IMG/VR virus record: IMGVR_UViG_3300030116_003560
Coordinates: 1-36,977 of that record
Length of the DNA: 36,977 bases
DNA from: a virus
Direction: 5' to 3' (one strand)
In this document: positions 9,866-34,485 of the stretch, piece by piece
How the letters are laid out: every line of letters begins with the position of its first letter
Numbering within the stretch: position 1 is the stretch's first letter
Notes under the pieces: generated by a model
Seen by the model: only the letters and a program-made list of their open reading frames with translations
What the model was told of the DNA's origin: nothing
Databases searched by the model: none
Made by a program: the position numbers and the translations under genes

Positions 9866-10616
9866 GTATGGCTCATCATTTGTAGAAGCAGACCCCGCAA
9901 GCGGAAACAATGTTTTGGGGTGCGTCTTAGATGTGCAAAACCCCAAATCTTATCCGGGGAGTGGAACAGATGTTAAAAATTTAGGAACGCAACTTGCTTA
10001 TTCATCTGGTGATACAATAAAGGGCGTTTTAGGTGGAGAAATGACCGTTCCTACTAACCCACTAAGATTTAAGACTAATACTGTTAATAGTGCCTCTAAT
10101 GATGATTATAATATAAATTTAGTAGATGCTTTGGATGATGGCGCCGAATCATTTCATTTCGCAGACCAAGCCGCATGGAGTCAAGAAATGGTGGCAAAAA
10201 TTGTCTCCGGCCAAACAAGTTATCATTCTCTTACAGGAAGAAGTGCTACTACGCCGTGGTGGAATTTGTATGTAAGTAGTGATACTAATTGGATAATGAG
10301 ATACAGAATTAGTGGGGGCGATTACAAAGATTCAACTACACAAACTACTGACCTATCTGAATGGCACCATTTAACTATTACTTGCGCTACAGATAGAACG
10401 CTTAGTTTTTATGTTAATGGGCAATTAACAAATAGTGTAGATGGCGTAAATACATACTGTCAAGTAAGTAGAGTAGGTGGCGGCTATATATGTTGTAGCG
10501 GTGCCGCTTACCATAATCTAAGGGGGGAATTTCTATATTACAGACTATACAACAAAACACTAACGGCAAACGAAGTTAATCAAAACTACGGGGCCGCATT
10601 GGGGAGAATGATATAA
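9855..10616 (+). CDS. LamG/concanavalin A-like lectin protein
   Basis: ATG at 9855 overlaps the fibre gene by 11 bases. The 253-aa protein has two hallmarks of LamG-type phage adhesins. Near the N-terminus is VLDVQNPKSYPGSGTDVKNLG, cut here to VLDVQNPKSYPGSGTDVKNL. At the end is YYRLYNKTLTANEVNQNYGA, which corresponds to the closing strand and helix of the jelly-roll. In between, WHHLTITCATDRTLSFYVNG is the usual central LamG strand pair. It is probably a virion surface lectin binding host glycans, acting with the fibre gene before it and the second lectin after it. Ligand specificity cannot be read from the sequence. Confidence 0.8.
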   Translation: MTYKYGSSFVEADPASGNNVLGCVLDVQNPKSYPGSGTDVKNLGTQLAYSSGDTIKGVLGGEMTVPTNPLRFKTNTVNSASNDDYNINLVDALDDGAESFHFADQAAWSQEMVAKIVSGQTSYHSLTGRSATTPWWNLYVSSDTNWIMRYRISGGDYKDSTTQTTDLSEWHHLTITCATDRTLSFYVNGQLTNSVDGVNTYCQVSRVGGGYICCSGAAYHNLRGEFLYYRLYNKTLTANEVNQNYGAALGRMI

Positions 10617-10721: not shown

Positions 10722-11564
10722 ATGGGTGTATGTGGTGGAGTAAAACTTCCTCAAGTAGACAAACTTGTGATGTGTCTTGACGCAGGCAATTTCAAAAGTT
10801 TTGTTATGGGCAATCAATGGAAAGATGCTTCTAATAACGGACACGATATGTGGTCTTATGATGATAACGTGCTACAAGGCTCTGGTTCTCTTTCTAATTC
10901 TACTGTTATAAATTCTAACGATTATGTATCAACGGGTTGGAGTAGAGGAATTATTACGCAAGCGGGCGGTTGGGTAGGGACAGATAACCTTGCCGGTGGT
11001 GCGCCGTTTGCTTCTGGTAGTAATACTTTAGGCATCACATCTTCTACAGGTGCCACAATTCATATAGTAAGAATGAATACAGGAAGTGCGTATACGAATG
11101 CCGGATTTAAAATCTTCCAAAGCGGAGACGCAGGTGGCCCTAGTAGGGGTTATTTCGCACATATAACTTGGTCTGATGGTAAAGTTTACTTTGATACTAG
11201 CGGAAGCACTAATGGCGGGAGTGGTGGCGGTAGGGTTGGCCCTACGGCAGTTTTACACTCTGCGGGTGATTGGCAACATTGGACTTTTACTAAAGATACA
11301 GGTTCTTCTGGAAGTAATACACAAACAATTTATCTAAATGGCGCACAGGTTTTACAAAGGACAAATGCAGGTGCCTGCCCTACATTGAGTGCAGACCCTA
11401 TGACTATAGGGGTGGATGAGGGTTATGACGGTAATGGTAATGAAAGACACGGTTTATTTATGCTATTCAATACTTGTTTGACGGCGGCAGAGGTCAATAA
11501 ACTTTATCGTGGTTTTGCGGGAAATGCTTATGACATTCCGTGTGGTAGGTGGGTTCAAGCGTAG
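10722..11564 (+). CDS. Second LamG-like lectin protein
   Basis: ATG at 10722. The 280-aa product shares the architecture of the lectin at 9855: an N-terminal VDKLVMCLDAGNFKSF strand, a central WQHWTFTKDTG...TIYLNG strand pair, and a closing LFMLFNTCLTAAEVNKLYRG. The two are diverged paralogues or independent LamG acquisitions, with low identity by eye outside these motifs. The predicted role is binding of host surface sugars as part of the virion adhesion apparatus. It lies between fibre genes in one transcriptional direction. Confidence 0.78.
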   Translation: MGVCGGVKLPQVDKLVMCLDAGNFKSFVMGNQWKDASNNGHDMWSYDDNVLQGSGSLSNSTVINSNDYVSTGWSRGIITQAGGWVGTDNLAGGAPFASGSNTLGITSSTGATIHIVRMNTGSAYTNAGFKIFQSGDAGGPSRGYFAHITWSDGKVYFDTSGSTNGGSGGGRVGPTAVLHSAGDWQHWTFTKDTGSSGSNTQTIYLNGAQVLQRTNAGACPTLSADPMTIGVDEGYDGNGNERHGLFMLFNTCLTAAEVNKLYRGFAGNAYDIPCGRWVQA

Positions 11565-16886: not shown

Positions 16887-16926
16887 GGACACTTCGTTGT
16901 TAGGTGAAACACATAGAGGTATCATT

Positions 16927-18873
16927 ATGGGTGTAGATTGGACAAATCGTTATGTCGCTTTGGAAAGAGAGACTTCATACGGTGTAGAAAACGGAATTAT
17001 AACAAGTGTGGCATTAGACGGCACCGGAAGCGGGTATAACAACTCAAGTGCGGGAACGTTTACTTGGAGACTAGGAACAAAGGCTTCTCCGGTTTGTGGT
17101 GGCTATGGTGCTACAGGACAGATTACTTTCAACGGTAGCGGAACGGCAACGGCCATTACACTAACCAATCACGGACAGGGCTACACAAGCGAACCAAACG
17201 CCGCCGCTAACCATGCCACAGGCATTGAGATTGTAGGTGCGGCCTCTGGTGGCTCAAACCTTACTTTCACTATCGCAGGTCGCTTCACAAGCAAGGGAGT
17301 CACCTATGGAGAAGTAGATGACGAGTCCATGAAGCAAACCTTTGAGTTGCTTACTCGCTCTGACATGAGCCGACAGGTTGCATCCAAAGCCGTGACAAAC
17401 ACCCAATACGGTGAGGGTTCAGTAAACTTGGCCGTTCAGCCAGACGATTTCATGGGCAAAATTATACACTCCTTCCTACCTGCAACAGAGACGGGAACGG
17501 CATTCGCTGACCACGTTAAGATGACAAACAGGGGTGGTTTTTATTCGGCCGCAGGGACTTTTAGCGTTCCTCTAGCCACTAACTTTGGGACAGAAAATGC
17601 AGAAGTAGTCTGCAAGATAGAATTAATATCTACAGGTCTTGCACCTGCGGCCCAAGTAGCCGCAGATTCTTCTTCCGCTTTTGACGTAGGTGGCGGTTCA
17701 AGCCTTACAACAACACAACAAATGACAGAAGTAAGAACCCTAACGGGGCAACAAAAGTATCATAACTATCTATCTTCTGATGGTTCTGCCGCAGAAGCCG
17801 CAGTAGCAAACAGAGCGCTTTTGAATGACAACGACAAACTTTACTTCTATCACACGGATGGCACAGTTAAGTTTGCAGGTGATGTAAACGGCAACCACTC
17901 AAGCGCTACACAACTAAACCTAGATGGTAGCAACAGAAACGTAATACCCGCAAACACAACTCTTTACTCTTACAGAGTCACAGAGGTTCATATAGTGAAC
18001 CCCGGAAAGGGCTACTCTGGTGTTCCTACCGCTTCCTTCGCAGGTGCGGCAGGTGCGGCAATAGGTGGGCTTACTTCTGGTGGAAACGCCGCCGGAACAG
18101 TAAACATGGGTGCATCAAGAACACACGTTTTCAACGAGCCTGTGCTAACAACCCACGCTTACCCATCCTACACAATGAGGGTCGGTAGGGGAGACAGGGA
18201 ACACACCTTCACAGGTATGGTATGTTCCAAACTATCTTTCAGCGCTAACCTAAACGAGTATGTGATGGCTTCCGTGGACTTCGTAGGGAAGAACGAAGAG
18301 GCTACTTCTACGCTACGAACAGACGTTGATTTCGCCGGTCTAGCAGTAGACGCACTTCACTTCGCTGACGCAGAGGTTTACTTTGAAGACCACCCAGACA
18401 AGACTGTGAAGGTTCAGCAGATTTCCTTTGAGATTAACGTGAACCGTGACCTTGACTCTGCATACGCAGTAGGAAACAGGTCATTCACTCGTGCCCCACC
18501 TACCCAGACAAGGGAGATTACGGGAACGATGGAATTCAACGAGGTTCTTTATAGCGACACCGCAGACTATGTAAACGAGCCTACTTATGACGACCTAACA
18601 GGCTCAAGCGTTCACAAGATTCAGCCCGGTGCAGGTAAGCCTGCTATCAAGTTGAAGTTTGCTAGTGAAAGCGGTGCTGATTACATTGAGTTTAAACTCT
18701 TCAACGTGCGATTTGAGGCGCCCGAAGCATCAGTTAGCGGCCGTGACCCAAACAGAATGTCTGTCGGTTTCCAAGCATACTACGATGCTACTACGCTAGG
18801 TTCTGGAAAGGCCGTAGAGTGTAAACTCGTGGGTAGCGGTTCTCATATACAAACTACAAACTACGGGGCTTGA
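16927..18873 (+). CDS. Major tail tube protein with inserted GSGY-type modules
   Basis: The ATG at 16927 is chosen for its SD and promoter; a TTG at 16897 has neither. The product is 648 aa, well above the roughly 200-350 aa of ordinary tube proteins. Segments typical of a tube fold include YGEVDDESMKQTFELLTRSD, GEGSVNLAVQPDDFMGKIIH, YVMASVDFVGKNEE, VKVQQISFEINVNRDLDSAY, then TREITGTMEFNEVLYS and a final strand region with YIEFKLFNVRFEAPEASVSG. The extra length comes from Gly-rich modules at about 16990-17287 (ITSVALDGTGSGY; ITLTNHGQGYTSEP) and 17970-18115 (VHIVNPGKGYSGVPTASF). These probably stick out from the tube. Codons are optimised as in the capsid gene, consistent with high expression. 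It is followed by chaperone and tape measure genes, as in siphoviruses. Confidence 0.75.
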   Translation: MGVDWTNRYVALERETSYGVENGIITSVALDGTGSGYNNSSAGTFTWRLGTKASPVCGGYGATGQITFNGSGTATAITLTNHGQGYTSEPNAAANHATGIEIVGAASGGSNLTFTIAGRFTSKGVTYGEVDDESMKQTFELLTRSDMSRQVASKAVTNTQYGEGSVNLAVQPDDFMGKIIHSFLPATETGTAFADHVKMTNRGGFYSAAGTFSVPLATNFGTENAEVVCKIELISTGLAPAAQVAADSSSAFDVGGGSSLTTTQQMTEVRTLTGQQKYHNYLSSDGSAAEAAVANRALLNDNDKLYFYHTDGTVKFAGDVNGNHSSATQLNLDGSNRNVIPANTTLYSYRVTEVHIVNPGKGYSGVPTASFAGAAGAAIGGLTSGGNAAGTVNMGASRTHVFNEPVLTTHAYPSYTMRVGRGDREHTFTGMVCSKLSFSANLNEYVMASVDFVGKNEEATSTLRTDVDFAGLAVDALHFADAEVYFEDHPDKTVKVQQISFEINVNRDLDSAYAVGNRSFTRAPPTQTREITGTMEFNEVLYSDTADYVNEPTYDDLTGSSVHKIQPGAGKPAIKLKFASESGADYIEFKLFNVRFEAPEASVSGRDPNRMSVGFQAYYDATTLGSGKAVECKLVGSGSHIQTTNYGA

Positions 18874-18877
18874 TTAA

Positions 18878-19015
18878 ATGCAAGACATTAACCAACCTAT
18901 GGAAGACGCTATGGCAGACCCTACTACTACAGTTATAATGGCAGAGCCAGAGCCAGAGCCTAAGAAAAAGGCCGCACCCAAGAAAAAAGCCGCTTCTAAG
19001 AAGAAAGATGAGTAA
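18878..19015 (+). CDS. 45-aa protein with lysine/alanine-rich tail
   Basis: The ATG at 18878 lies 4 bases after the tail tube stop, with a TGATTAA context. The first 28 residues are acidic and end in AEPEPEPEP-like repeats (EPEPEP). The last 17 are KKKAAPKKKAASKKKDE, like a histone H1-type tail. It is disordered overall. It could bind DNA or the negatively charged tube interior, or act as a small tail assembly factor. The family is unknown. Low complexity limits confidence, but the position and start context are good. Confidence 0.5.
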   Translation: MQDINQPMEDAMADPTTTVIMAEPEPEPKKKAAPKKKAASKKKDE

Positions 19016-19017
19016 TT

Positions 19018-19164
19018 ATGGATAGGCAAACCTTTACAAACTCTATAGGGGTTTGGGAGATTCAAGAAGACGGGTCAATACGTCTTATTAGTGAGGCCGA
19101 AGTGCCAATAGAGAGAAAGGTGAGAAAAAATGCCGGTGGCGAGAAAAGACATAGAATTAGATGA
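19018..19164 (+). CDS. Small hypothetical protein (48 aa)
   Basis: The ATG at 19018 is 2 bases after the previous stop. The product has a short strand pair (TNSIGVWEIQEDGSIRLISE) followed by a basic tail. It overlaps the next gene by 35 bases in a different frame, so part of its 3' end is constrained by that gene. No family is recognised. Confidence 0.45.
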   Translation: MDRQTFTNSIGVWEIQEDGSIRLISEAEVPIERKVRKNAGGEKRHRIR

Positions 19165-19513
19165 TGGAAGCATAATAACGGTTAGACAAGTTTCTGGTAA
19201 GAAGAAACTTAAACTTGAGGCTAGACAAGCCAAAGTCTTTAGGGATTATAGACATTTTGGGGAACCTACTGATTGGACTACAGAGCAACACGAAGAATTT
19301 GCTGATGCGCTTGATGAAGCAGGTGCGGGACTACAGGCCCAAGTAGATGAATGGTTAGAAGACTGTATAGTATCTGAGGGTATTGAAATAGATGACCTTA
19401 CATCAGCAGAATTACTAGAAGTCCTTTCCTTTGTTCGTGGAGATTTAGAAATTGATGAAGATACTGACACAGAGGAAGGTCACTCAGTCCCTTTGGAACC
19501 TTCGCAAGAGTAG
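19130..19513 (+). CDS. Tail assembly chaperone, first frame (G-like)
   Basis: ATG at 19130 with AAAGGTGA upstream. The 127-aa product starts with a beta hairpin (ARKDIELDDGSIITVRQVSG), then helices (LKLEARQAKVFRDY; EQHEEFADALDEAGAGLQAQ) and an acidic end. Its place between the tail tube and the tape measure is the usual site of the two-frame chaperone pair (lambda G and GT type). Near its 3' end it contains CCCTTTG, read as CCT TTG, a -1 slippery heptamer. Slippage would join it to the frame at 19468-19812 and give a product of about 227 aa. Such chaperones coat the tape measure and recruit tube subunits. Confidence 0.65.
   Translation: MPVARKDIELDDGSIITVRQVSGKKKLKLEARQAKVFRDYRHFGEPTDWTTEQHEEFADALDEAGAGLQAQVDEWLEDCIVSEGIEIDDLTSAELLEVLSFVRGDLEIDEDTDTEEGHSVPLEPSQE
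19489..19495 (+). promoter_or_regulatory. Predicted -1 ribosomal frameshift site CCCTTTG
   Basis: The heptamer has the form X XXY YYZ (C CCT TTG) in the zero frame of the chaperone gene. The -1 frame is open from 19468 to 19812. A purine-rich SD-like stretch (AGGAAGG, 19473-19479) lies 9 bases upstream, a placement known to stimulate -1 slippage in bacterial dnaX. I see no strong stem-loop at the usual downstream spacing. Confidence 0.6.
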
Positions 19514-19527
19514 CGCCGTCTCTTTGC

Positions 19528-19812
19528 ATGGCCTTTAAAGGCGTTCTTCCCTCAGATTTGTGGGATAGGTATGACCGTGAGGATGGTTATTATAGATTAC
19601 AATTAGATTTATATGTGGCCGCAGAAATAAACGACCAAGTTTCAGAAGCACACGCTAAGGCTGAAAAGGGCCATAAAGGTGCGGGTGATGCTAACGCTAT
19701 GGTTGCTCGCCGTAATCAGAGGCGCAAGCAATATTTAAGCAACACCGATGACTTCTTTAGTGCCGTAGAGAAAGCAGGGGTGCCTGTAAGGAAGAGTGGA
19801 GAGGGTGATTAA
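19528..19812 (+). CDS. Tail assembly chaperone, second frame (T-like), probably made by -1 frameshift
   Basis: An ATG at 19528 would give 94 aa, but it has no SD, unlike most neighbours. The frame is open upstream to 19468, overlapping the first chaperone gene in the -1 frame. The product is helical and basic-acidic mixed (GYYRLQLDLYVAAEINDQVS; AMVARRNQRRKQYLSNTDDF), as in the T half of lambda-type chaperones. Its stop overlaps the ATG of the tape measure by one base. Expression as a fusion with the upstream frame is more likely than independent starts, though both could occur. Confidence 0.6.
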   Translation: MAFKGVLPSDLWDRYDREDGYYRLQLDLYVAAEINDQVSEAHAKAEKGHKGAGDANAMVARRNQRRKQYLSNTDDFFSAVEKAGVPVRKSGEGD

Positions 19813-22568
19813 TGGCAAAAATTAGTGGCCCAAGAATATTCTTCGACATTGTAGGAACGTTTCAAGCAAACAAACTACTAAAAGATTCATCAGCCGCTAT
19901 GACGGCTATGAATGCTATAGCCCTAGACGGGCTAACAGGCATTATGGATTCTGGGGGCGCTATTGCCGAGCAAATGCAGGCGGTAGTAGATGCTACTGTT
20001 CCTCTATCCGCAGAAATAGAAAGAGCGCAAATTGAGTTTCAAAAGTTTTTGGGAATTGGCGAACAATTCCATGATGGGATTACTAGACAAGTAGAAGACG
20101 TAGGTATGCAGTTTGGTTTTACTGCTACACAATCTCTAAATGCGGGCGCAAGAATGGCGCAGTTATCTAAAATTATAGGGTCTGAAACTATTCCCGCCGC
20201 TACTGAAATGGCGTTTGCTTTCGGTCTTATTGGTGACATGACGCCAGAGGATGCGATGACTAAACTTATTAACCTGCAAGCCCAAACTAACTTCTTGTTT
20301 GAGGAAACAAGTAGGGCTACATACAACACTATGAATGCCGAGCAAAGAAGGCTTCATGTGACAAAAGAAATGGCTTCTGTTCTCAACCAACTTAACTCTA
20401 TAGAAGATAAATCGGCCGCAACAATGGCTAAGATTACTAGAGTAATGAACGAGTTTGCTTCCCAAGCAGACCTTACAGGTGAAAGCATAGCGATGATGGC
20501 CGCTATGTCTGCTACACTCATTGAAGCAGGTGAGGAACAAGGAAAGGCAGGCCGTGGTCTAAGAATGATTTATGCCCGTTTGGGTGCAGATACATCGGGT
20601 GCGGCTTCTTCTTTACATGAATTGGGTATTGAAACCAAAAATTCTGATGGTAGCCTAAGAGCGCTTTCAGATATTATCCTAGATTTGAAGCCCGCTTGGG
20701 ATGGTTGGAATGCGGGACAGAAGCAAAACATCGCTCAACAAGTAGCGGGGAACAGACACTATGTTAGATTCATTAAATTGATGGAGAATAGCGATAGGGT
20801 TATCGAATTAAATAACGAAGCACTTATCGAGTCTGGTGCAGTAATGAGCGAGACAGGAGAGGCTACAGGTTATCTTGAAACATTGGTAGAAAGTAATACT
20901 GTTGCTTTAGACAGGCAAAGAGCCTCTTTGGAAAGAACGGCCGCTATGTGGGGAGACGTTTTTATTCCGGGCCAAATAGAAGGAATAGCAATACAAGAAG
21001 AAGTCTATAAACTTCTACTAAATATTGTCAATGCACACGGCAAACTTGGTGGGGCATTATCTGGATTAGTAAGATTTAAGACAGTAATAGAAACTACTTA
21101 CGCACCTATGCTATCAGCATTGATAAATGTAAAGGCTATGACTATTGCTATGGCTACACAAAAAGCGCTAATGAGAGCGCTTTCTGGTGAGCAATTGGCT
21201 TATGCTAATAAGCAACAAGCGAATGCGGATATGGCCCAAATAGATAGTGACCAAGCCATAGCAGATATAATGGCAGAAATAGATGCTTTAGAAGCAAAGA
21301 GAAATCAACAGATAGAAAATTCTACGACAAATATGCAAATTTCAGAACGAAATGATATGCTTGCTAATGAAGAATTACTAAACTTGAAAGCGATTAAACA
21401 AGAAATAATTACAGGTGGCGCAATTAAAACAAAAATTGCTAGTAAAGACAAACTTATAGGTGATTATGTCACAAACAACAAACAAAAAGAATTACTTCTA
21501 ACACAAGCAACTACCGCTAAATACGATGCGGAATCAATTGCTAAAGGCAACAATATGATAGAGACAAGACAATTACAAGAAAGCATAAATCAAGAAAAAA
21601 ATACTAGGCAACAAGTAATTGCTCAAATAGAAATACTCATACAAAACTTGAAAGAATTCATAATAACAAATGACCAATACAGACTATCCGTTCAAGAAGG
21701 AACTATGTCCACAGAAGAATATGAAATGGCTTTGTTTGAATTGAATTTAAAATTACAACAAGTCGAAGGCACTACCGAAAGAACGAAACATAGTTTTAGT
21801 GGTATGAATATGGTAATGATGAAAATGTCTATGGCTTCTATGGGAGTCCACATGGGCATGAGTCTTCTTTCTCCTATCTTATTTAAGAATAAAGATGCCG
21901 CAGAAAAGGCTAGGTTAGAAATGGCCGCTATGACAGTCACTTCCGTTATTATGGGTATAGAAATGCTAGTCTCTATGTCCCACATGATGAAGAATACCGC
22001 CGCTATGACAGGTCAAGGTGCGGCGGCTGGATTTTCGGCTATGATGAATAAACAACTTTCTAGGGCTTTGATTGCGGTAGGTTTTAGTGCTAAAACTGCA
22101 ACAATTTGGTCGGCTAGACTTATGACAGTCTTGAGTCTGGGGGTTATGGTAGCGGTAATAGCAGGTGCTATCTGGGCACTAGACAAGTTATTGAAAAAGT
22201 ATGACGATATTGGTGATTCTGCGGCAGATGCGGCCGGTGCCGTAGAGGATTTAAACACATCGTTTGCTACTAATGTCGCAGATGCAGAATACACTATAAG
22301 CCCAGACATAGATTTCTCTGCCGCAACTGCAAGTATGCAAGAATTTGCAGGCGCTAGAGAAGAAATGTTCTTTGGTTTCAAAGCAGGTAGGGTGACAGGA
22401 GATATGATTAAGCAGGTGCAACAGGGCGGTATTGAAACCTTTATTTCTAATACAGAAGTGATTATGACTAACAACTTTAATGGGATGACTACAGAAGAAG
22501 TAGCAGAGCAAATCCTAGATGAGATTGAAAGAGGCGGTAGAGCAAGAGGGATGGCTATTGGTGCGTAA
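19812..22568 (+). CDS. Tape measure protein
   Basis: ATG at 19812 with GAGGGTGAT upstream. The 918-aa product is almost all helical. Residues about 90-390 resemble the conserved TP901/lambda-type tape measure core (VEDVGMQFGFTATQSLNAGA; AAMSATLIEAGEEQGKAGRG; YLETLVESNTVALDRQRASL). A coiled-coil stretch lies at about 470-650 (IMAEIDALEAKRNQQIENST). Three hydrophobic segments lie at about 672-692, 708-728 and 770-792 (LSLGVMVAVIAGAIWALDKL). It sets tail length and is expelled at DNA entry; the hydrophobic segments may insert into the host membrane. At about 0.15 nm per residue it would correspond to a tail near 130-140 nm, which is a family-based estimate. It is followed by the hub gene with a short overlap. 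Confidence 0.85.
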   Translation: MAKISGPRIFFDIVGTFQANKLLKDSSAAMTAMNAIALDGLTGIMDSGGAIAEQMQAVVDATVPLSAEIERAQIEFQKFLGIGEQFHDGITRQVEDVGMQFGFTATQSLNAGARMAQLSKIIGSETIPAATEMAFAFGLIGDMTPEDAMTKLINLQAQTNFLFEETSRATYNTMNAEQRRLHVTKEMASVLNQLNSIEDKSAATMAKITRVMNEFASQADLTGESIAMMAAMSATLIEAGEEQGKAGRGLRMIYARLGADTSGAASSLHELGIETKNSDGSLRALSDIILDLKPAWDGWNAGQKQNIAQQVAGNRHYVRFIKLMENSDRVIELNNEALIESGAVMSETGEATGYLETLVESNTVALDRQRASLERTAAMWGDVFIPGQIEGIAIQEEVYKLLLNIVNAHGKLGGALSGLVRFKTVIETTYAPMLSALINVKAMTIAMATQKALMRALSGEQLAYANKQQANADMAQIDSDQAIADIMAEIDALEAKRNQQIENSTTNMQISERNDMLANEELLNLKAIKQEIITGGAIKTKIASKDKLIGDYVTNNKQKELLLTQATTAKYDAESIAKGNNMIETRQLQESINQEKNTRQQVIAQIEILIQNLKEFIITNDQYRLSVQEGTMSTEEYEMALFELNLKLQQVEGTTERTKHSFSGMNMVMMKMSMASMGVHMGMSLLSPILFKNKDAAEKARLEMAAMTVTSVIMGIEMLVSMSHMMKNTAAMTGQGAAAGFSAMMNKQLSRALIAVGFSAKTATIWSARLMTVLSLGVMVAVIAGAIWALDKLLKKYDDIGDSAADAAGAVEDLNTSFATNVADAEYTISPDIDFSAATASMQEFAGAREEMFFGFKAGRVTGDMIKQVQQGGIETFISNTEVIMTNNFNGMTTEEVAEQILDEIERGGRARGMAIGA

Positions 22569-25500
22569 AGTTAATACAAAATACGGTGCTTGGCTTGCCG
22601 GATATTATGATGATTTCTTAGGTGCTAGGGCTATCCCAGATGATAGAAACACACCTAGCAAATCTGCTGATTATGACCATACAAATTCACACCACGGAAA
22701 CCCAATGAATGGTGAGGCTACACTCAATCCTCGCTTTAGGTGGGCTAACTGTGAGAGGGCACATACTAGCGGAATAGTATATTTTACAGGATTAAATAAT
22801 AAACTACTAAGGAACAAAGGATTATTTGAATGGCTATCTTGGGATTCTATTAGAAACAGGCCCGATGATTGGGAAGGTAGAGCGCAGATACAATATCCAG
22901 ATGGACACATACCAAATAGGGGGAGATTTAACAATGCGGCAGGTTCATCGTATCAACTTATTTCTAATGGGTATAATACAAATTCTAACTACTTTATCCC
23001 TAGTGGAGATATAGATGCTACCTTTGGTAGAGTCACAATAGAAAATTGGAGTAATAATAACCTTAATAATAAAATATCTGGCGGTATTAATTATAATACT
23101 ACCGAAATTAAAAGTGGGGCTTTCTTTACTCAAAGGGCACACTTAACGGGTATATGGGCAGGTGAATGTTTCCCTTTTTCTACTGACGAACACAACAAGA
23201 ATATGTTTGCGCCTGTAAGAACGGCTAGTGGAAAACCTTTTTTAGTAGTGCAATCTAACAGGACTACTTACAATGCTCAGAATGATAAACCCACCATTGT
23301 TTATGATGGTGATTTAAATTCCAGATTAGATAACGATGTTTTTACTGCTAGGGTTTGTGTAAGGTCATTTAATGGTAGTGATTTTGCACATCCTATGGAT
23401 TCTTCTACAAATAAATCACATATTTATCCTAGTCTTGAATTTAGAATAGGGTATGCAAAACCCGCAGACCCAATGCTAACAGAGTCGGGTTTTAGTGGCA
23501 CCCCCGCTATACAATATACCCACGATTTTTATACGGGTGGTGGGGCTAACTTAGATTACGATTTCTACGGCGCAAAATATCTTGATAACAATACTAAGGT
23601 TGATATTAAGACAGAAGATATGTGGATAGATTTTGAGTTTGTTATTAATTACACCACAGGCAAATATAGAGTTTTTATTAATGGGGTAGAAGACAAAGCC
23701 AACGTTTATAACCTAGCAGGTAGCCCTACTGCCGGTTCTTTGTATGGTTGGGAAATGGACTTAAGACCTCAATTCTTTACTGCGGGTCAAAGAGATGATG
23801 GTGTAAACGCTAGTTATGCCCCAAAACAAACTACGCAATATCTTATGTTAGATAGGGTAGGGTTGGTTCACCACCTAAATGATTCTCCTATATTTGATAA
23901 TCCAGACGATACAACAATTCATAGTTTAGAAGTGACTTTGCCTGCTAACGGTATTTCTAACGCTAGATTAAAGTTGTTTGATGATGCACAATACGAGGCT
24001 AATACAGATTCTTTTGGGAAGCAAACTTCTAGTTATTATTTAAATCTAAAGAAAGTCCTTACGGAAGGTAATGATTGGGAATTGTTAGTGTTTGGTGATG
24101 AAAATAGTTCCCATGTAGATAGACCTATTTGGCGTGGAGTATTATCAAATTTAAAGATAAAACAAAAAAATAATCAAGGTAGAGAAATAGAAATTTCAGC
24201 AGAAGATAGAATAAGTATGTTAGGTAAACAAATTCCTCTTTGGGAAGTAGGGCAAAAGGCTACATCAGACGAGGGAGACACATCGGCCTATTGGTTATAT
24301 GACGCAAAAGGTTTTGGGAAGATAATGAATTTTGGCGCCAGAGAGTTAGAAATGCTTTCTAACAAACTAGGGTTTGATGTTGATGATGGCTACCAAGAGC
24401 AATCAGACCAAAGAACACAAATGGGTGCTTCTCACCCCATACAAATGTATAATAACGAAGATGAAAACGGGCCTAACTATGTAGAAAGATATTATGATGG
24501 TAAAGGTATTATTGGTTTTAGCCAAGAATATGTAAGTAATACATTAAACACTATTCTTTATTTTAACACTACTTCTGGGTATAGTGCCGGAGATAATATA
24601 ACCATTAAACATAGTGGTTTTCACGATGGAACATACGCTATTGCTAGTGTAGATAACACAAGAAATACTGTCAATATTTTAGCCTCTAATTTAGCCTATT
24701 CGCCAGAAACGGCTAAAATTATTATGCTTACTAATTATGTTGTAGAACCTAATTTTGACTTTGAAGAATGGGGGTCTACTTATGATTCGACAACAGGACA
24801 ATACGGAAAGAATGTTTGGGATTGGAATGTAAACGAAAGACAACACCCAAATACAAATGATGCTACTTCTGATTTTATGACTGTGGTATTTGATAGCGAC
24901 CCCGGATTAAAGATAGGTGATGATTTCTATATTACTGCTGAAAAGAAATCTAGTAATAGCGCTTCGGAATTTACCGCACCTGTCGGGGTAAAACACGTTA
25001 AACATACTGTGAGAGAAATTGTGTCTGGAAGAAATTACTATCTTCAAAATAGAGTAGGGTATTCACCGGCACTTTCTCATAGCACCGCCTTTAATGAGAG
25101 CGGTGATTATTCATGGAATCATAAGTGGTATATTGTAAGAACATTTAGTGAAGTAGCAAACCCAGAATTACCTCAACATACGGGTGATAACGGAACGGCA
25201 ACCGGAACATCATTCCATGTTGATAAAATAACAGAAAACCTTACTCCTGTAGCAAATAGCGGCGATGATAGATTCAAACTTAATGGAACATCAACAGTTA
25301 TAGCAAAAATTGATGTTGGGGATTACTTATATCAAATGAGCGGGCAAAATGAAACTTGGGGCGCTATAGTAGTAGAAAAAATAGGCACTACGCAAATAAG
25401 AGTAGAAAACCAATGGAAGCCGGGTGGCGCAACAAACTCACAGGCTTTTAACATACGAAGAAGCAGACCTCTTAGACAGATAGGTTCCCCTACACAAAAT

Positions 25501-28500
25501 AACAATGTTTGGTCTTATGATAAAGACGATAGGTGGACTTGGTGTAAAGATACAGGATTTACTACCCCTAATACTACCGGAACAACGGCGGCTCATAAGG
25601 CCATACACGCTACTTGGATGAGAGATTTGCCCCACTCTTTGTGGTTCCAATATCACTTCGGCCAAATTAATAAAAACCCCGTTAATAGTTGTGATGAGTT
25701 TGTTTCAAACACAGGGTTAGCATGGACAAAGATAAATCCTACAGAGCAAAGTAATAATGGTATTACAACGTCTACTACACAAGTGCCCATACCACAACAT
25801 ACGTTTAACGAATTAATTGCGGCGGGCAAATCAAGTGGTGTTGCCGAAATGATAAGCACAGATTCTAACGGTAATGTAGGAATTCCTTTTAGGTTTATAT
25901 TTAGGGGTCTGGGTATAGAAACCACCACAACAACGGGCGGAAGTCTTACTACGAGTATAGGATATAATACCCATAAATATTATCTACAGGACTGTATGTA
26001 TATTAGTCAGAAAATACCCACTACTCACAATCATTATATTAGAATAGAAAATTTTTCAAATGATTATAAGCACCTGTGGTTGTTGTGGTCTGATATGAGA
26101 AATAACGGTAAAGCAAACGCCGCCAACAATACAAGAAAAGTAAACTTTGGTTTTGCTCACCCCCTTATGGATAACTACACAGTAAAATTAGCCTTTATAG
26201 ACCAAGTAAATGATGAAGGCTTCGCTGAAGTTTTCACAGAGTTAAAAATAGGTGAAGATATTGGTATGTGGAATATAGACCCAAGCACAGACCCAACGAC
26301 AGGTATGCCATTCCATACTCCTGTTGATTGGGATGCCGCAACCAAAAACGTGACTATGCAATATCAAGGTAATAATAATTACCAATTTACTTTACCTACA
26401 GGCGTTTTGAAATCTGGCGATACTTTTACACTAAGAAATCTTCACCCCGGAACGCAATTAGAAGGTAAAACTTTTACAATTACTACCGGAACAAACGCTA
26501 TAGTAAATCATGGTAATGGCTCTTCCACAGTATATGGAACATTAACAACGCCGCCAATGGCAAGACCAAGCGGCACTAATACCGCAGACAATTATGGTGG
26601 GACTACAATAAGCAAAGATGGTGGAACAATAGTCGGTAAAATAGTAGGAACGCCACTACTAGATTCTAAATATCAAAATTGGGGAGATAAGGGCGGCTCT
26701 TTAGTTATAATTGACTCTTCAAGATTCTTTAATCTTAACACAGGTAGTAATGGTGGTATGTCTGGTAGAGACGCAGGTGGTGAGACAAAATTAGAAGACT
26801 TTGTTGCTACTATTAGGGGCTATCCGGCTCTTATTGATAACTATTGGAATCAAATACTTACCACTTCTAAGAATACGGGAGATATATTCAGTAATCACCC
26901 AAATGAATTAAAACTAATTAACGATAGTGCTAGAGTTAATGGTAATATTTATGTCGGAGACACTTCTATACAATTAGAATCTACAGAAGAGTTTGGGGAT
27001 GCAGGTTATGGTATAATACAAGCGTTGGGAGATGAGGCTACAAAAGCGAGTATACCACAAAAATTCTTTTTTCATTGGGGTTGTAAAAACCCCACAGAAA
27101 GAGAAGCGCATATACATAACACCGCAAACCATTCTTCTTCTAACGAGTTTTTAGTGCAATCGGGAACGGGCTTTACAAATGGGCCTACCGCATCTACATG
27201 GGAAACATGGGGAATAAAAGCGGGTATGGTGTGTCAGTCATCCTATAATGGTTTATATTACACGGTCACGAGAGTTATTAGTAATACAAGTTTAAAACTC
27301 CATAGAATACCTAGAGGATATACCGAATTAGTAGAGGGTGGGGATATAGATGCAAATTTAGGGCCGGAAAATACAGGAGAATCACTAACGTTTTCCCCAC
27401 AATTAGGTAAAGTATATCTTACTTCTTTGGCAGAGTCGGAAGCGGGTAGCCAACAAAGAATAGAGACAATAGATAATAGTATACCGTCTACTCTAAGACT
27501 TACTTTCAATAGTGATAATCTAGCCGATATTTCAGAAAATGCAAACACAACGGCAGGCGGCTCTAACAAACACGCCGGGTTTTATTTCCTCTATGAAGAT
27601 ACAACATTTAAAGACGTAAGAGATTGGTGGTCGGCTTATTACGCAGAAACAGAAAATACTTATTTGGGAACAGGAGATTGGAGAAACAGTTTAAATGGTG
27701 GGACAGGTCATAACGCATCCTTACTAAATAGTTATCTTTTCAATAAAAAAAGACTAACTTTTATCTATAGAAAAACAGGCAATCAAGGAGATATAGATAC
27801 GGGGTGGCAAAACACGAAATTCAAAACAACGGAACAGTATGGTTGGTATGGGTGGCCTAGAACGAGAACGCAACTTGGTGATGGGCCTGTTATTATCAAT
27901 GTGTTAAAAGACAAAGACGGAAATTCTACAGAAAACACAGGAGTTTTAATTGCCTTCACTAACGGTTATAATGCTGATACTGTCACTACCTTTTCTGTTG
28001 ATACAGTAAACCCGACCACTCAATTTACTCAAGGGGAGAAAGTATATGTTGAGGCGGGCGATAGTAGTATTGTTGAAGTAGGAACGATACAATCTATGAC
28101 AGGAACAACTATTACTTTAACGGCTAATAATCTTGTAGCCCTACCAAATAATACACAACTAAGGCGAAATATACGAGAAAGCAAGGAAAATACCGCTTCT
28201 ATTCTACATAAACTTATCAACGATAATTATTCTGATATATTTAGTGCTACATTAAATGCCAACCAAGTTGTAATTACAAGGAAAAACCCAGATTTATATG
28301 ATACTCATAATGACCCCGGAGATTTTATCCCTTTCAAATTGGGCGTTTCTGATTATGGCGACCCGGATGACGAGTATGGGACTTATGGTGCAGGTCTTGA
28401 AGTGACATTGGCGGGAGTAGGAAACGTGATTGGTTTTACTGTAGGTATACCTTCTGAAAATAATAAGGTTCAGATAGGCGGCATAACTTACCAACAAGAA

Positions 28501-31236
28501 ATAGCCCGTTTGTATACACAATCTATATTGGCGCAAGTTTCTGATACTGCCGAAGGGGATGTGGGTTATGGTTCAGAAGTAGAAATACATAAAAATAATT
28601 ACCCTACTGTCTCAGCCCATAATTCTGTAGCGCCAGATTTCGCTCTAAGAATGATGATGTTTATTGGTGGGCAAGTAGAAGATAGAAACATAGGAACATT
28701 CTACGATAATGATAAATTTAGAGTCATGTGGAATGCCGGACTAATGAAGAGTTGGTTGCCACCCACAAATATTGCTACACCTATGGACATAAATAACGTG
28801 CCTATAACTAGAAACATGACTACAGATGGAACGACTACAAACTCAGATAGTTTTGGGGGTATAATAGATTCTAGGGGTAAGAATATCTACAACACTATAA
28901 AAGATATACACAAATCTTCTGGTGTAGGTATAAACAATACTATCAACACATTTAGTTTCCAATTAGGTAGAGATGGTAGGGTAGACTTTAGACCTAAATT
29001 TAATAGCGGTTTAATAATGAATAGAGACAGTCTAATGGTTAGCGAAATGGATAGTAGTATAACGTCTAAAATTAGTCATGTTAGGGTTTACTATAATGAC
29101 AATGCCTCTTTCTACGACCACCCTACTACTTCTATGGAAGATACTACCAAGTGGAAAATATTTAAATTCCCCGCTATAAAAAATGCAAAAGAAGCGCAGG
29201 CCATAGCAGAATCGGAATACGCCACACTACAAAACTCAACACTTTCTATCCGAGCCAGACCTAAATTAGACATTAATGAAAAGGACAAGATGATACACAA
29301 AGGAAGATACGGTTATCTAGCAGACCCATACCTAGCAAATCAAGGGGTTAATGATACAGATGATTCTACAGACCATTTTAACAGTCACCAATGGACTAGA
29401 ATAGGAACAGGTGGTGCGTTTATTAACGGTATGGTAAACGCTTTAGATGGAAGGCAAAATCAAGGAGATGATTCTCATAGATATGGGTCATCAGACAGAC
29501 CTCACGCAGTAAATGATGTAAACGCAACGGATTACACAGAAAATTTCTTTTTCTATGGGGCTAACAGTCTATCTTATGCTCTCCAAGTAGTCCACATACC
29601 TAACGGGGCGCCTTTATCGGATGATGACGAAAATGATTTGAGGGTAATAATTAGTTTAAAGAATGGGCAGGGCACCTTCGCTAACGATAGCGCTACAGAT
29701 GCCGATATAGAGGCGGCAGAGTTTACTGTGCATTTATTCCAATTCACCTTCTCCAATGGCAATACAGGAGATGCTAGGGCAAGAAGAAAGGGCGCAACAC
29801 AGGTGGCTCATACCTCGGTAAATGTAAAGGGTAGTGGATTCTATGAGATTGAAATGCCTAACTATGCAGGTAAAAATATGGTTATTTCTGTAAACGCAGA
29901 ATACCTAAGAGCGCTTCTAAGACATAGGTGCGGAAACCCCAATCAGTCTAACATACTCAAGAATGCTCACAGTATACCCAATACGGGTGGCAGTAGCCTG
30001 TCTTTAGATACAGGAAATGATGACTCTATATTCCCTCTGGGTATAAGACATTGGACTACGCAATCAAACGGTATGTATTCTGGTCTTAGGTCATTTTATT
30101 ATGCACCTAGAATCCATGTCTGTCAAGACTTGGCTTATTGGCCGGGAACCTTCATCAAGTATACTGATGCGGGGCTTGGTCTTGACAACGAAACTTTAAC
30201 TATAGAACAAGTAAAATGGCAAGTAAAGGCGGGCCAAGAGCCAATAATAAGTTTACTATTAGAAAAAGATTTATCTTTTAGGGCTAAAAATATTTTGGGA
30301 AGTATTTTGCCCGGTGGCCCAGACTACGGTGAAACTAGCCACAGTATAGGTGCTTACGTCACTCCCTCTCAAGAGCCATCAGATAATGCGGGCGCAAATA
30401 CTTTACCGGGCGCAGGCACCAACCCACCCAACGCACCGCCAAGTTTTAGTTATACAGAAGAAGACCAAAACGTATCACAAGCAATAAACCAACAGGGATT
30501 CCAACATCAAATACCCAACGATGGTGGGAGTAATGTTGGTGGTGGTTATAACGATAACACAGGGCAAGGGTCTGGTCACAATAGCGGCGGCTCTACTATT
30601 AATCAAATAGGTAGTGGTGCTTATGCTAATATTAGGGGGCATGGGGATATGTTGATGGATAACATAAGTAGTCAAGGTCAATGGTCTATACTAGGTCAGA
30701 GAAAGCCCGCACCTACACCTAAGAGCATAAGGGGCGCAGACGCACCAATAGATATGAAACCCGTTGGTGGAACGGCTTGTAATACAGACGATGGTTATTC
30801 TTTACCGGGCAAAGGAACGTCTTCGTCTGAGGGTGGCTACCAAGATAACAACGCTATCTCTGGTGAAATTATTATTCCCCCAGATATTATGGGTGACGAA
30901 ATAGAATTGTGGGGAGAAGTAAGTCACGCTATAGGCTCTTTAGATAATACTAACGCTACCATAACTACAACGATTACTTGTAATGGTATACAAGATTCTC
31001 ACACGCAAACAATAAGGAGTAATACTAGCAATTCTCGTGTTTCTTTACTCCCTAGAAGAAACTTAAGTGGTTTGGCTACAAGCGGAAACAGAGTTAAAAT
31101 AAGAGTAGAAAGAACAAGTCACTCTAGTAATGACTCAGACTACAGTAGCGTTATTATACACAACGTAAACGTTGGATTAAATAGAGCGGTTTCTACTGCG
31201 CCTAACGCAACAAATAGTTTTGTCGCTAATCAATAA
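22561..31236 (+). CDS. Giant baseplate hub / host-recognition protein (about 2890 aa)
   Basis: The start is uncertain. GTG at 22561 has GAGGG 10 bases upstream and a short overlap with the tape measure. ATG at 22519 would add 14 residues read from inside the tape measure gene, with no good SD. By order it takes the place of distal tail plus tail-tip (gpJ/gp27-like) genes. Residues about 365-460 have LamG-like strands (YRVFINGVEDKANVYNL). Residues about 464-573 resemble one half of a hub domain (RPIWRGVLSNLKIKQKNNQG; EIEISAEDRISMLG). Another hub-like half appears near 2139-2580 (INTFSFQLGRDGRVDFRPKF; LTIEQVKWQVKAGQEPIISL). About 1500 beta-rich residues separate them. A Gly/Asn/Pro-rich linker (about 2600-2700) and a final beta-sandwich (about 2780-2890) end the protein. 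It probably forms the tail tip and binds the host surface. Confidence 0.7.
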   Translation: MRKVNTKYGAWLAGYYDDFLGARAIPDDRNTPSKSADYDHTNSHHGNPMNGEATLNPRFRWANCERAHTSGIVYFTGLNNKLLRNKGLFEWLSWDSIRNRPDDWEGRAQIQYPDGHIPNRGRFNNAAGSSYQLISNGYNTNSNYFIPSGDIDATFGRVTIENWSNNNLNNKISGGINYNTTEIKSGAFFTQRAHLTGIWAGECFPFSTDEHNKNMFAPVRTASGKPFLVVQSNRTTYNAQNDKPTIVYDGDLNSRLDNDVFTARVCVRSFNGSDFAHPMDSSTNKSHIYPSLEFRIGYAKPADPMLTESGFSGTPAIQYTHDFYTGGGANLDYDFYGAKYLDNNTKVDIKTEDMWIDFEFVINYTTGKYRVFINGVEDKANVYNLAGSPTAGSLYGWEMDLRPQFFTAGQRDDGVNASYAPKQTTQYLMLDRVGLVHHLNDSPIFDNPDDTTIHSLEVTLPANGISNARLKLFDDAQYEANTDSFGKQTSSYYLNLKKVLTEGNDWELLVFGDENSSHVDRPIWRGVLSNLKIKQKNNQGREIEISAEDRISMLGKQIPLWEVGQKATSDEGDTSAYWLYDAKGFGKIMNFGARELEMLSNKLGFDVDDGYQEQSDQRTQMGASHPIQMYNNEDENGPNYVERYYDGKGIIGFSQEYVSNTLNTILYFNTTSGYSAGDNITIKHSGFHDGTYAIASVDNTRNTVNILASNLAYSPETAKIIMLTNYVVEPNFDFEEWGSTYDSTTGQYGKNVWDWNVNERQHPNTNDATSDFMTVVFDSDPGLKIGDDFYITAEKKSSNSASEFTAPVGVKHVKHTVREIVSGRNYYLQNRVGYSPALSHSTAFNESGDYSWNHKWYIVRTFSEVANPELPQHTGDNGTATGTSFHVDKITENLTPVANSGDDRFKLNGTSTVIAKIDVGDYLYQMSGQNETWGAIVVEKIGTTQIRVENQWKPGGATNSQAFNIRRSRPLRQIGSPTQNNNVWSYDKDDRWTWCKDTGFTTPNTTGTTAAHKAIHATWMRDLPHSLWFQYHFGQINKNPVNSCDEFVSNTGLAWTKINPTEQSNNGITTSTTQVPIPQHTFNELIAAGKSSGVAEMISTDSNGNVGIPFRFIFRGLGIETTTTTGGSLTTSIGYNTHKYYLQDCMYISQKIPTTHNHYIRIENFSNDYKHLWLLWSDMRNNGKANAANNTRKVNFGFAHPLMDNYTVKLAFIDQVNDEGFAEVFTELKIGEDIGMWNIDPSTDPTTGMPFHTPVDWDAATKNVTMQYQGNNNYQFTLPTGVLKSGDTFTLRNLHPGTQLEGKTFTITTGTNAIVNHGNGSSTVYGTLTTPPMARPSGTNTADNYGGTTISKDGGTIVGKIVGTPLLDSKYQNWGDKGGSLVIIDSSRFFNLNTGSNGGMSGRDAGGETKLEDFVATIRGYPALIDNYWNQILTTSKNTGDIFSNHPNELKLINDSARVNGNIYVGDTSIQLESTEEFGDAGYGIIQALGDEATKASIPQKFFFHWGCKNPTEREAHIHNTANHSSSNEFLVQSGTGFTNGPTASTWETWGIKAGMVCQSSYNGLYYTVTRVISNTSLKLHRIPRGYTELVEGGDIDANLGPENTGESLTFSPQLGKVYLTSLAESEAGSQQRIETIDNSIPSTLRLTFNSDNLADISENANTTAGGSNKHAGFYFLYEDTTFKDVRDWWSAYYAETENTYLGTGDWRNSLNGGTGHNASLLNSYLFNKKRLTFIYRKTGNQGDIDTGWQNTKFKTTEQYGWYGWPRTRTQLGDGPVIINVLKDKDGNSTENTGVLIAFTNGYNADTVTTFSVDTVNPTTQFTQGEKVYVEAGDSSIVEVGTIQSMTGTTITLTANNLVALPNNTQLRRNIRESKENTASILHKLINDNYSDIFSATLNANQVVITRKNPDLYDTHNDPGDFIPFKLGVSDYGDPDDEYGTYGAGLEVTLAGVGNVIGFTVGIPSENNKVQIGGITYQQEIARLYTQSILAQVSDTAEGDVGYGSEVEIHKNNYPTVSAHNSVAPDFALRMMMFIGGQVEDRNIGTFYDNDKFRVMWNAGLMKSWLPPTNIATPMDINNVPITRNMTTDGTTTNSDSFGGIIDSRGKNIYNTIKDIHKSSGVGINNTINTFSFQLGRDGRVDFRPKFNSGLIMNRDSLMVSEMDSSITSKISHVRVYYNDNASFYDHPTTSMEDTTKWKIFKFPAIKNAKEAQAIAESEYATLQNSTLSIRARPKLDINEKDKMIHKGRYGYLADPYLANQGVNDTDDSTDHFNSHQWTRIGTGGAFINGMVNALDGRQNQGDDSHRYGSSDRPHAVNDVNATDYTENFFFYGANSLSYALQVVHIPNGAPLSDDDENDLRVIISLKNGQGTFANDSATDADIEAAEFTVHLFQFTFSNGNTGDARARRKGATQVAHTSVNVKGSGFYEIEMPNYAGKNMVISVNAEYLRALLRHRCGNPNQSNILKNAHSIPNTGGSSLSLDTGNDDSIFPLGIRHWTTQSNGMYSGLRSFYYAPRIHVCQDLAYWPGTFIKYTDAGLGLDNETLTIEQVKWQVKAGQEPIISLLLEKDLSFRAKNILGSILPGGPDYGETSHSIGAYVTPSQEPSDNAGANTLPGAGTNPPNAPPSFSYTEEDQNVSQAINQQGFQHQIPNDGGSNVGGGYNDNTGQGSGHNSGGSTINQIGSGAYANIRGHGDMLMDNISSQGQWSILGQRKPAPTPKSIRGADAPIDMKPVGGTACNTDDGYSLPGKGTSSSEGGYQDNNAISGEIIIPPDIMGDEIELWGEVSHAIGSLDNTNATITTTITCNGIQDSHTQTIRSNTSNSRVSLLPRRNLSGLATSGNRVKIRVERTSHSSNDSDYSSVIIHNVNVGLNRAVSTAPNATNSFVANQ

Positions 31237-31948
31237 ATTTATCTCTTAGGGCTAATATTTTTTTGGCTTTGGTTCTACCTATCCCCTTTACTTCCATTAG
31301 AGATTTTTGAGTTTGTCTACTGTGCAAAACTTTTGGGAGAGAACCAAAGTGTTGTAGTAAATCTACTGCCATAGCGGGAGTCACACCCGATATAGAAGAA
31401 AGCACCGCAACCCTATCATCGCTTGGTTTACTATTTTCCTTTCTTACGAAGTCTGGAAGTCTATTTATCTGGGCGCCGCCATCCATCATCATTTGTGTAT
31501 GGTTTATGATAAGCCAATCTACAAACTCTTCCATGCTCTGTAATTCCATGTATTTTATTTTTGGGAAGCGCTGATAAAAAGTCAGTTTAAATCTGGAAAT
31601 AACTTTTTTCATTTTACTCATTTCGATTGCCATTTTTTGTCTGTTAGCATAGCCGGGAACATAGGGCTTAAGTTTAGTGCCGTAGACAACCAACATAGGG
31701 TTCTCCCAATTTTCTTCCAAGTCCCTTAATTGGTCTACTATAGTCCTTGTTCTACCGCTACCAATTATACTGCGGTAGAGGTCATTGATTTCTTTAGCCT
31801 CTATTCCCCATTGGCCCATGCCATAGTCAGCACTAACCATGCGCTTTACTTTAGCCTTGCCATTTTTATTGTCTTGCGACCAATCGCCTAGCCTCATCAG
31901 TATTTTATTCACGACTTTGGGGTTTTCTCTATCGTCTATTAGTAGCAC
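31226..31948 (-). CDS. XPF/Mus81-family (ERCC4) nuclease with tandem HhH
   Basis: GTG start at 31948, with no close SD but a TATA-like box 26 bases upstream. The 240-aa product has an N-terminal ERCC4 nuclease core: IDDRENP (D5, D6, R7, E8), ADYGMGQWGIEAKEINDL (D41, E50, K52, D56) and YRSIIGSGRT. It is close to the family pattern GDXnERKXXXD but reads ADY and EAK, so the GD and ERK motifs are each altered at one position while the acidic residues and Lys remain. The C-terminus has two helix-hairpin-helix units (LSSISGVTPAMAVDLLQHFG; LMEVKGIGRTKAKKILALRD), the (HhH)2 DNA-binding end of XPF/Hef. No helicase part is present. The predicted role is cutting branched or flap DNA during viral replication or recombination. 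Its 3' end overlaps the hub gene by 11 bases. Confidence 0.85.
   Translation of the reverse strand: MLLIDDRENPKVVNKILMRLGDWSQDNKNGKAKVKRMVSADYGMGQWGIEAKEINDLYRSIIGSGRTRTIVDQLRDLEENWENPMLVVYGTKLKPYVPGYANRQKMAIEMSKMKKVISRFKLTFYQRFPKIKYMELQSMEEFVDWLIINHTQMMMDGGAQINRLPDFVRKENSKPSDDRVAVLSSISGVTPAMAVDLLQHFGSLPKVLHSRQTQKSLMEVKGIGRTKAKKILALRDKFID
31257..31263 (+). terminator. Possible oligo-T terminator for the late operon
   Basis: A run of seven T lies about 20 bases after the hub stop, in a T/A-rich context. Archaeal termination often uses such U-tracts without a hairpin. It lies inside the 3' end of the convergent nuclease gene. Evidence is weak. Confidence 0.3.
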
Positions 31949-31969
31949 AAATACTTGTGAACCTGTAGC

Positions 31970-31977
31970 ATATTTAA
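31970..31977 (-). promoter_or_regulatory. TATA-box promoter for the ERCC4 nuclease
   Basis: On the minus strand this reads TTAAATAT. Its centre is about 26 bases before the GTG at 31948, which fits a transcript beginning at the start codon. The element has the same TTAAATA core as the promoter at 12911. It lies within the 34-base gap between the microprotein gene and the nuclease. Confidence 0.5.
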
Positions 31978-31981
31978 GTAG

Positions 31982-32122
31982 TTATATGATGCAACCGTCA
32001 TCTCCACAACAAGATACTATCTTAGTGTGGCAATTTAGACAAGCGGATGAACCATGCACTTCTATAAATCCCTTATCGCTAAAACAAAGCGGGCATCTAA
32101 CTTTCTTCTGTGTCATTGTCAT
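31982..32122 (-). CDS. Zinc-ribbon microprotein (46 aa)
   Basis: ATG at 32122, preceded by AGGAGA from the end of the primase gene; an internal ATG at 32116 is possible. The product contains VRCPLCFSDKGFIEVHGSSA and then CLNCHT, i.e. Cys10/Cys13 and Cys28/Cys31, the classic spacing of a zinc ribbon like those in TFIIB or TFS. A further CCGDDGC lies at the C-terminus. Possible roles are a DNA- or RNA polymerase-binding accessory factor. It is encoded just after the primase in the replication operon. Confidence 0.65.
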   Translation of the reverse strand: MTMTQKKVRCPLCFSDKGFIEVHGSSACLNCHTKIVSCCGDDGCII

Positions 32123-32127
32123 ATTTA

Positions 32128-33132: not shown

Positions 33133-33136
33133 ACTA

Positions 33137-34454: not shown

Positions 34455-34478
34455 AATTACTACCCCTACCGTCTCCGC

Positions 34479-34485
34479 ATATAAA
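34479..34485 (-). promoter_or_regulatory. Possible TATA box before the zinc-ribbon gene
   Basis: On the minus strand TTTATAT is centred about 28 bases before the ATG at 34454 and abuts the PolB stop codon. This is close to the spacing of the other two proposed leaderless promoters. A GGGGT element 7 bases before the ATG could also serve as an SD for a readthrough transcript. Confidence 0.35.

What the first reader, a model, noticed from the sequence alone, without database searches (positions are those of the whole stretch)
19468..19812. Programmed -1 frameshift in the tail assembly chaperone of a probable archaeal virus
Seen: the gene at 19130-19513 contains C CCT TTG in its zero frame at 19489. 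The -1 frame is open from 19468 to 19812. The ATG of the second frame (19528) has no SD although most neighbours have strong ones. AGGAAGG lies 9 bases before the heptamer. Known: lambda-like G/GT chaperones use -1 slippage at such heptamers between the tube and tape measure genes, and an SD-like element stimulates slippage in dnaX. Inference: a fusion of about 227 aa is made. The heptamer CCCTTTG and an archaeal host would make this an uncommon case.
Basis: partly seen in the sequence, partly recalled or inferred. Interest (0 to 1): 0.75.

Follow-up and report, generated by a model that had tools for sequence, protein, structure and literature searches.

The report
Conserved frameshift in archaeal-type tail gene
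Just before the gene for its tail ruler, this marine virus has a site where ribosomes very probably slip back one base to make a longer tail-building helper protein; the trick is known from other tailed viruses, but here a different slippery word, CCCTTTN, is kept across dozens of related, probably archaeal, viruses.

Summary
CCCTTTG lies in phase (C_CCT_TTG, 19489-19495) near the end of ORF G (19130-19513), and the -1 frame is open from 19468 to 19812, between a tail-tube gene and the tape-measure gene. In 94 distinct G/T overlaps (window plus 93 IMG/VR relatives) T is always in the -1 frame. 79 carry CCCTTTN, 7 carry TTTTTTG, and 8 keep only the tetramer T_TTT. The slip-to-AFKG spacing is exactly 14 codons (13 for TTTTTTG) in all 94, although the G stop moves. 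Between the G stop and the T ATG, substitutions fall mainly in third positions of the -1 frame. The T ATG is absent in 6 of 63 representatives and has no Shine-Dalgarno in any of the other 57. So T is made as a G-T fusion (about 227 aa here). The proposed dnaX-like SD stimulator is not supported: the conserved RGD..EGA peptide explains it. No conserved downstream RNA structure was found. The host is probably archaeal (magrovirus-like), not proven. Such frameshifts were already inferred in haloviruses. New here are the CCCTTTN word, its deep conservation, and its decay only where the A-site codon is TTT.

The parts
16897..18873 (+). Tail tube / major tail protein, 658 aa
   Evidence: Pfam PF18906 Phage_tube_2 E 3.6e-7; PHROG 290 E 1.9e-14
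19130..19513 (+). Zero-frame ORF G, tail assembly chaperone (127 aa)
   Evidence: 77-member alignment A4. AF2 model pLDDT 82.7. Weak fold matches to HK97 TAC 2ob9 and phage TACs
19473..19479 (+). AGGAAGG, proposed SD-like stimulator; not supported as a selected element
   Evidence: Synonymous-recoding test
19489..19495 (+). Slippery heptamer C_CCT_TTG
19489..19812 (+). -1-frame extension T (codons used after the shift 19495-19809, stop 19810-19812)
19528..19530 (+). ATG in the T frame; not needed as a start in relatives, no SD
19812..22568 (+). Tail tape measure protein (918 aa)
   Evidence: Pfam PF10145 E 1.1e-17; PHROG 5448 E 9.7e-18

Best explanation
Ribosomes translating the tail assembly chaperone gene G (19130-19513) mostly stop at TAG 19511-19513 and make the 127-aa G protein. 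A fraction slip back one base at C_CCT_TTG (19489-19495). Pro-tRNA re-pairs from CCT to CCC and the A-site tRNA from TTG to TTT. They then read GGA ACC TTC... in the -1 frame to 19812, giving a G-T fusion of about 227 aa. By analogy with lambda, G would coat the tape measure protein and the T part would recruit tail-tube protein. Shown here by comparison: the fused reading frame and its shift point. Inferred: slippage by ribosomes, its frequency, the tRNA re-pairing, the G/GT roles, and the archaeal host.
For: All 94 distinct overlaps have T in -1 relative to G. CCCTTTN occurs in 79, TTTTTTG in 7 and T_TTT only in 8. Slip-to-AFKG spacing is invariant while the G stop lies 7 to 34 nt after the slip. 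Downstream of the G stop, 4867 of 7364 pairwise substitutions are in third positions of the -1 frame. The codon before CCT ends in C in 51 of 51 CCCTTTN representatives although ATC, GTC and CTC are rare (0.15, 0.11, 0.06), and Pro is CCT in 51 of 51 (usage 0.39). The T ATG is missing in 6 of 63 representatives (3 changes on the tree); L168 has no start codon for 99 nt after the slip. No SD at the T ATG in 57 of 57. In four TTTTTTG and four CCCTTTG representatives the -1-frame stop and the G stop bracket the shift to 13 or 19 nt that contain the heptamer. The AF2 model of T makes residues 2-15, mostly upstream of the ATG, a confident helix. C_CCU_UU[A/G/U] shift in E. coli (PMC4066793).
Against: No protein or reporter data exist. 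No stimulator was identified: the SD-like element is explained by the peptide, and no conserved downstream structure appears. 8 of 94 relatives lack the P-site triplet. G and T have no significant match to a named chaperone family by sequence, and the structural match is weak. TTG to TTT is a near-cognate A-site re-pairing, not the best class in E. coli (PMC4066793).
Confidence: 0.93

Rival explanations
1. T is a separate protein started at ATG 19528 by internal initiation or termination-reinitiation after the G stop 15 nt upstream; the heptamer is incidental.
For: The ATG is present in the window and in 57 of 63 representatives, and the G stop lies a short distance upstream.
Against: ATG lost in three places on the tree; L168 has no start codon for 99 nt after the slip. 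No SD in 57 of 57. -1-frame coding signature and invariant spacing upstream of the ATG.
Confidence: 0.04
2. Frame change by transcriptional slippage (RNA polymerase stutter) rather than by the ribosome.
For: The TTTTTTG clade carries T6, and T-rich runs can slip.
Against: The window and most relatives have runs of only 3-4 identical bases (CCCTTTG); transcriptional slippage is described at longer runs (A or T runs above 7-8 nt, PMC3711429). Codon phasing X_XXY_YYZ is kept, and the C before CCT is kept by codon choice.
Confidence: 0.02
3. Annotation or assembly artefact: one gene broken by a one-base sequencing error.
For: None beyond the -1 offset itself.
Against: The same offset occurs in 94 of 94 distinct overlaps, while the zero-frame tail and stop differ by clade.
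Confidence: 0.005

Closest known systems
Lambda G/GT tail assembly chaperones (Xu, Hendrix and Duda 2004; reviewed in PMC5009743)
   Same: Two ORFs between tail tube and tape measure; second in the -1 frame without its own start; in-phase X_XXY_YYZ near the end of G; fusion product predicted.
   Different: Heptamer CCCTTTN instead of GGGAAAG; no detectable sequence similarity of G or T to named families; no measured frequency.
Haloarchaeal tailed viruses HVTV-1, HCTV-1/-2/-5 (PMC5009743) and Hardycor1 (PMC7911831)
   Same: Inferred -1 frameshift for G-T in archaeal tailed viruses.
   Different: Slip sites reported are GGGAAAC, AAAAAAC, GGGAAAG and GGGAAAT. HSTV-2 and HF1-group haloviruses are thought to use +1 (PMC5009743, PMC7230728).
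Phage P2-type TTTTTTG site (from memory)
   Same: One sub-clade of the relatives uses T_TTT_TTG.
   Different: Most of the family uses CCCTTTN.
E. coli phage 9g G/T, CCCUUUUUUU (PMC4276943)
   Same: CCCUUU run in a tail chaperone pair.
   Different: Reported as a -2 shift.
Magrovirales / Aoguangviridae (PMC10768690)
   Same: Relatives here encode family-B polymerase, RFC small-subunit-like clamp loader and GroEL-like chaperonin; the family's map shows a tail assembly chaperone.
   Different: PCNA, MCM and TFIIB were not found by Pfam models in 22 relative contigs; no named magrovirus genome could be compared.

Membership tests
Lambda-type G/GT frameshifted tail chaperone pair | Gene pair between tail tube and tape measure genes | tested here: met
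   PF18906 at 16897-18873, PF10145 at 19812-22568, G/T between
Lambda-type G/GT frameshifted tail chaperone pair | Second ORF overlaps in -1 frame and lacks its own initiation signal | tested here: met
Lambda-type G/GT frameshifted tail chaperone pair | In-phase slippery heptamer conserved in relatives | tested here: met
   86 of 94 carry CCCTTTN or TTTTTTG; 8 keep T_TTT
Lambda-type G/GT frameshifted tail chaperone pair | G is homologous to known tail assembly chaperones | tested here: inconclusive
   PHROG 344 (tail assembly chaperone) in 4 members, best E 0.07; HK97 TAC 2ob9 rank 3, E 0.5; mycobacteriophage TAC E 0.01
Lambda-type G/GT frameshifted tail chaperone pair | G-T fusion made at a low fixed ratio and needed for tails | not testable with these tools
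   Needs proteomics, reporters or mutants
dnaX-type stimulated frameshift cassette | Upstream SD-like element under selection | tested here: not met
   Observed mean -8.5 versus -9.3 kcal/mol for synonymous recodings of the same peptides
dnaX-type stimulated frameshift cassette | Conserved downstream stem-loop or pseudoknot | tested here: not met
   RNAalifold consensus empty; fold z-scores like control windows; pseudoknots not modelled
Magrovirales (archaeal marine tailed viruses) | Archaeal-type replisome genes and GroEL | tested here: inconclusive
   PolB nearest to haloviruses, RFC-S nearest to Pyrococcus RFCS, GroEL-like chaperonin; PCNA, TFIIB and MCM Pfam negative
Magrovirales (archaeal marine tailed viruses) | Phylogeny of MCP, terminase or portal with named magroviruses | not tested
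   ON649702 not held

The most novel reading that the evidence does not exclude
A large lineage of probably archaeal marine tailed viruses has kept a C_CCU_UUN frameshift site without any conserved stimulator, and it forms a natural mutational series. The P-site triplet is lost repeatedly, but only where the A-site codon is UUU (7 of 17 representatives against 0 of 41 with UUA/UUG), which would mean that archaeal ribosomes tolerate A-site-driven tetramer slippage when re-pairing is cognate.
Probability: 0.35. Interest if true: 0.55.

Novelty: new member of a known kind. Interest (0 to 1): 0.42.

Why it matters
It extends inferred G-T frameshifting to a widespread group of uncultured marine viruses with a slip word not reported for this gene pair in the papers I could read (apart from phage 9g's CCCUUUUUUU, a -2 shift). 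It corrects gene calls in many genomes where T would be annotated from a false ATG. It also offers a ready set of natural heptamer variants to test frameshift rules on archaeal ribosomes, where almost no experimental data exist.

Tried and rejected
SD-like stimulator: strong pairing upstream of the slip in 94% of representatives versus 12% of control positions looked convincing but vanished under synonymous recoding. Downstream RNA structure: no consensus structure, z-scores like controls. Phage records: no match to G or to the 5' capsid-region ORF. Bacterial and archaeal genomes: no relative of T or of the tape measure, so no host name. TFIIB, PCNA and MCM as archaeal markers: none found. 'Marine virus AG-345-P14' as a host clue: classed as Kyanoviridae, dropped. 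Several key papers (Xu 2004, Sencilo 2013, Philosof 2017, Pietila 2013) are not held or were not read; statements on them come from PMC5009743 or memory.

Full report
WHAT IS THERE. The zero-frame ORF G runs 19130-19513 (127 aa...EEGHSVPLEPSQE*). CCCTTTG lies at 19489-19495 with zero-frame codons GTC CCT TTG GAA, i.e. C_CCT_TTG. The -1 frame is open 19468-19812. Upstream is a tail tube gene (PF18906) and directly downstream a tape measure gene (PF10145). Only 2.3% of synonymous recodings of the overlap would contain any in-phase X_XXY_YYZ.

RELATIVES. G had no match in phage records, but the tape measure and the T frame pulled in about 170 IMG/VR loci. After removing duplicates there are 94 distinct G/T overlaps including the window. 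In all 94, T is in the -1 frame of G. Heptamers: CCCTTTG 54, CCCTTTT 14, CCCTTTA 11, TTTTTTG 7; eight have lost the CCC triplet (ACCTTTT, GCCTTTT, TCCTTTT, GCATTTT, ACATTTT) but keep T_TTT.

WHY IT IS ONE FUSED READING FRAME. (a) From the slip to the AFKG motif of T the distance is exactly 14 codons (13 with TTTTTTG) in all 94, while the G stop lies anywhere from 7 to 34 nt after the slip. (b) In the stretch after the G stop and before AFKG, pairwise substitutions fall 4867: 1634: 863 on third, first and second positions of the -1 frame (pairs are not independent). (c) The codon before CCT ends in C in all 51 CCCTTTN representatives although such codons are rare for Ile, Val and Leu, and Pro is always CCT. 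These representatives were chosen by heptamer, so the fairer figure is 51 of the 58 non-TTTTTTG representatives. (d) The T ATG is missing in 6 of 63 representatives, three changes on the tree. L168 has no ATG, GTG or TTG for 99 nt after the slip. (e) No representative has SD pairing at the T ATG (0 of 57 at or below -6 kcal/mol). (f) The shift point is bracketed by a -1-frame stop upstream and the G stop downstream: 13 nt in four TTTTTTG representatives and 19 nt in four CCCTTTG ones, the heptamer included. (g) The predicted T structure starts with a confident helix at residues 2-15, most of which lie before the ATG.

STIMULATORS. AGGAAGG is present as described. In relatives SD-like pairing within 24 nt of the slip is very common (59 of 63 against 12% of control positions). 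But the peptide there is conserved (RGD..EGA), and synonymous recoding with the family's own codon usage gives even stronger pairing (-9.3 versus -8.5 kcal/mol). There is therefore no sign of selection for the SD-like word itself; that the region helps anyway cannot be excluded. No conserved downstream structure appeared (pseudoknots not modelled).

THE BROKEN HEPTAMERS. Loss of CCC occurs only where the A-site codon is TTT (7 of 17 representatives) and never where it is TTG or TTA (0 of 41; Fisher p 6e-5, not corrected for relatedness). The losses are scattered among CCCTTTT relatives in several places of the tree (parsimony gives 5 changes of heptamer class in all). In E. coli the U_UU.Y tetramers are among the shiftiest, cognate A-site re-pairing is the main rule, and C_CC.U_UU.A/G/U shift at above 0.1% without stimulators (PMC4066793). 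The pattern fits that rule; it remains an inference for these hosts.

IDENTITY OF G. The AF2 model has HK97 tail chaperone 2ob9 as third hit in PDB with weak score (E 0.5), and several annotated phage tail assembly chaperones among the best viral hits (E 0.01-0.1). Sequence profiles give nothing significant. The assignment as tail chaperone rests mainly on position and architecture.

HOST. PolB in the window is nearest to haloviruses (127-157 bits against up to about 100 for the other listed records). A relative encodes an RFC-small-subunit-like protein whose best solved matches are archaeal, and 12 of 22 relative contigs a Cpn60-family chaperonin, GroEL-like in the one compared further. This matches the description of Magrovirales (PMC10768690). 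PCNA, MCM and TFIIB were not found, and no cellular genome holds a detectable relative. Archaeal host: probable, about 0.8.

KNOWN OR NEW. G-T -1 frameshifting in archaeal tailed viruses has been inferred before: HVTV-1 and HCTV-1, -2 and -5, with GGGAAAC, AAAAAAC and GGGAAAG given for the three HCTVs (PMC5009743), and Hardycor1 with GGGAAAT (PMC7911831). Some haloviruses are thought to use +1 (PMC7230728). No paper in the searched library discusses this for magroviruses (one search found one paper holding both words; its only 'frameshift' is in its reference list). CCCUUU in a tail chaperone is reported for phage 9g, as a -2 shift. The finding is a new member of a known kind with a distinctive slip word.

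LIMITS. Everything is comparative; no expression data were available.

Noticed in passing
18878-19015 and 19018-19164 (+): Two short ORFs between the tail tube gene and G: a Lys/Pro/Ala-rich 45-aa ORF (KKKAAPKKKAASKKKDE) and a 48-aa ORF overlapping the G start whose relatives share FTN.GVWEI.EDG..RLI.EA.; function unknown.
   Followed up: partly
1736-9865 and 22519-31236 (+): Two giant ORFs (2709 and 2905 aa) without any Pfam match, flanking the tail and lectin genes.
   Followed up: partly
9855-10616 and 10722-11564 (+): Two neighbouring proteins with Laminin_G_3 / concanavalin-like lectin domains, possibly receptor binding.
   Followed up: no
31226-36699 (-): Replication and repair module on the opposite strand: ERCC4-HHH nuclease, PD-(D/E)XK nuclease, family-B DNA polymerase.
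   Followed up: partly
L001, L004, L005, L007 tape measure starts: Many relatives have an N-terminal hydrophobic extension on the tape measure protein (e.g. MIVFCGVLMVVLRAGASRVFF) that the window, L002, L003 and L010 lack.
   Followed up: no
L177:5172-6671 (-), L172:1441-3030 (+): GroEL-like group I chaperonin genes in relatives, next to replication genes.
   Followed up: partly
L179:5024-5986 (+): ArdC-like protein (ArdcN plus zincin-like metallopeptidase domains), annotated in Pfam as an anti-restriction factor, in one relative.
   Followed up: no
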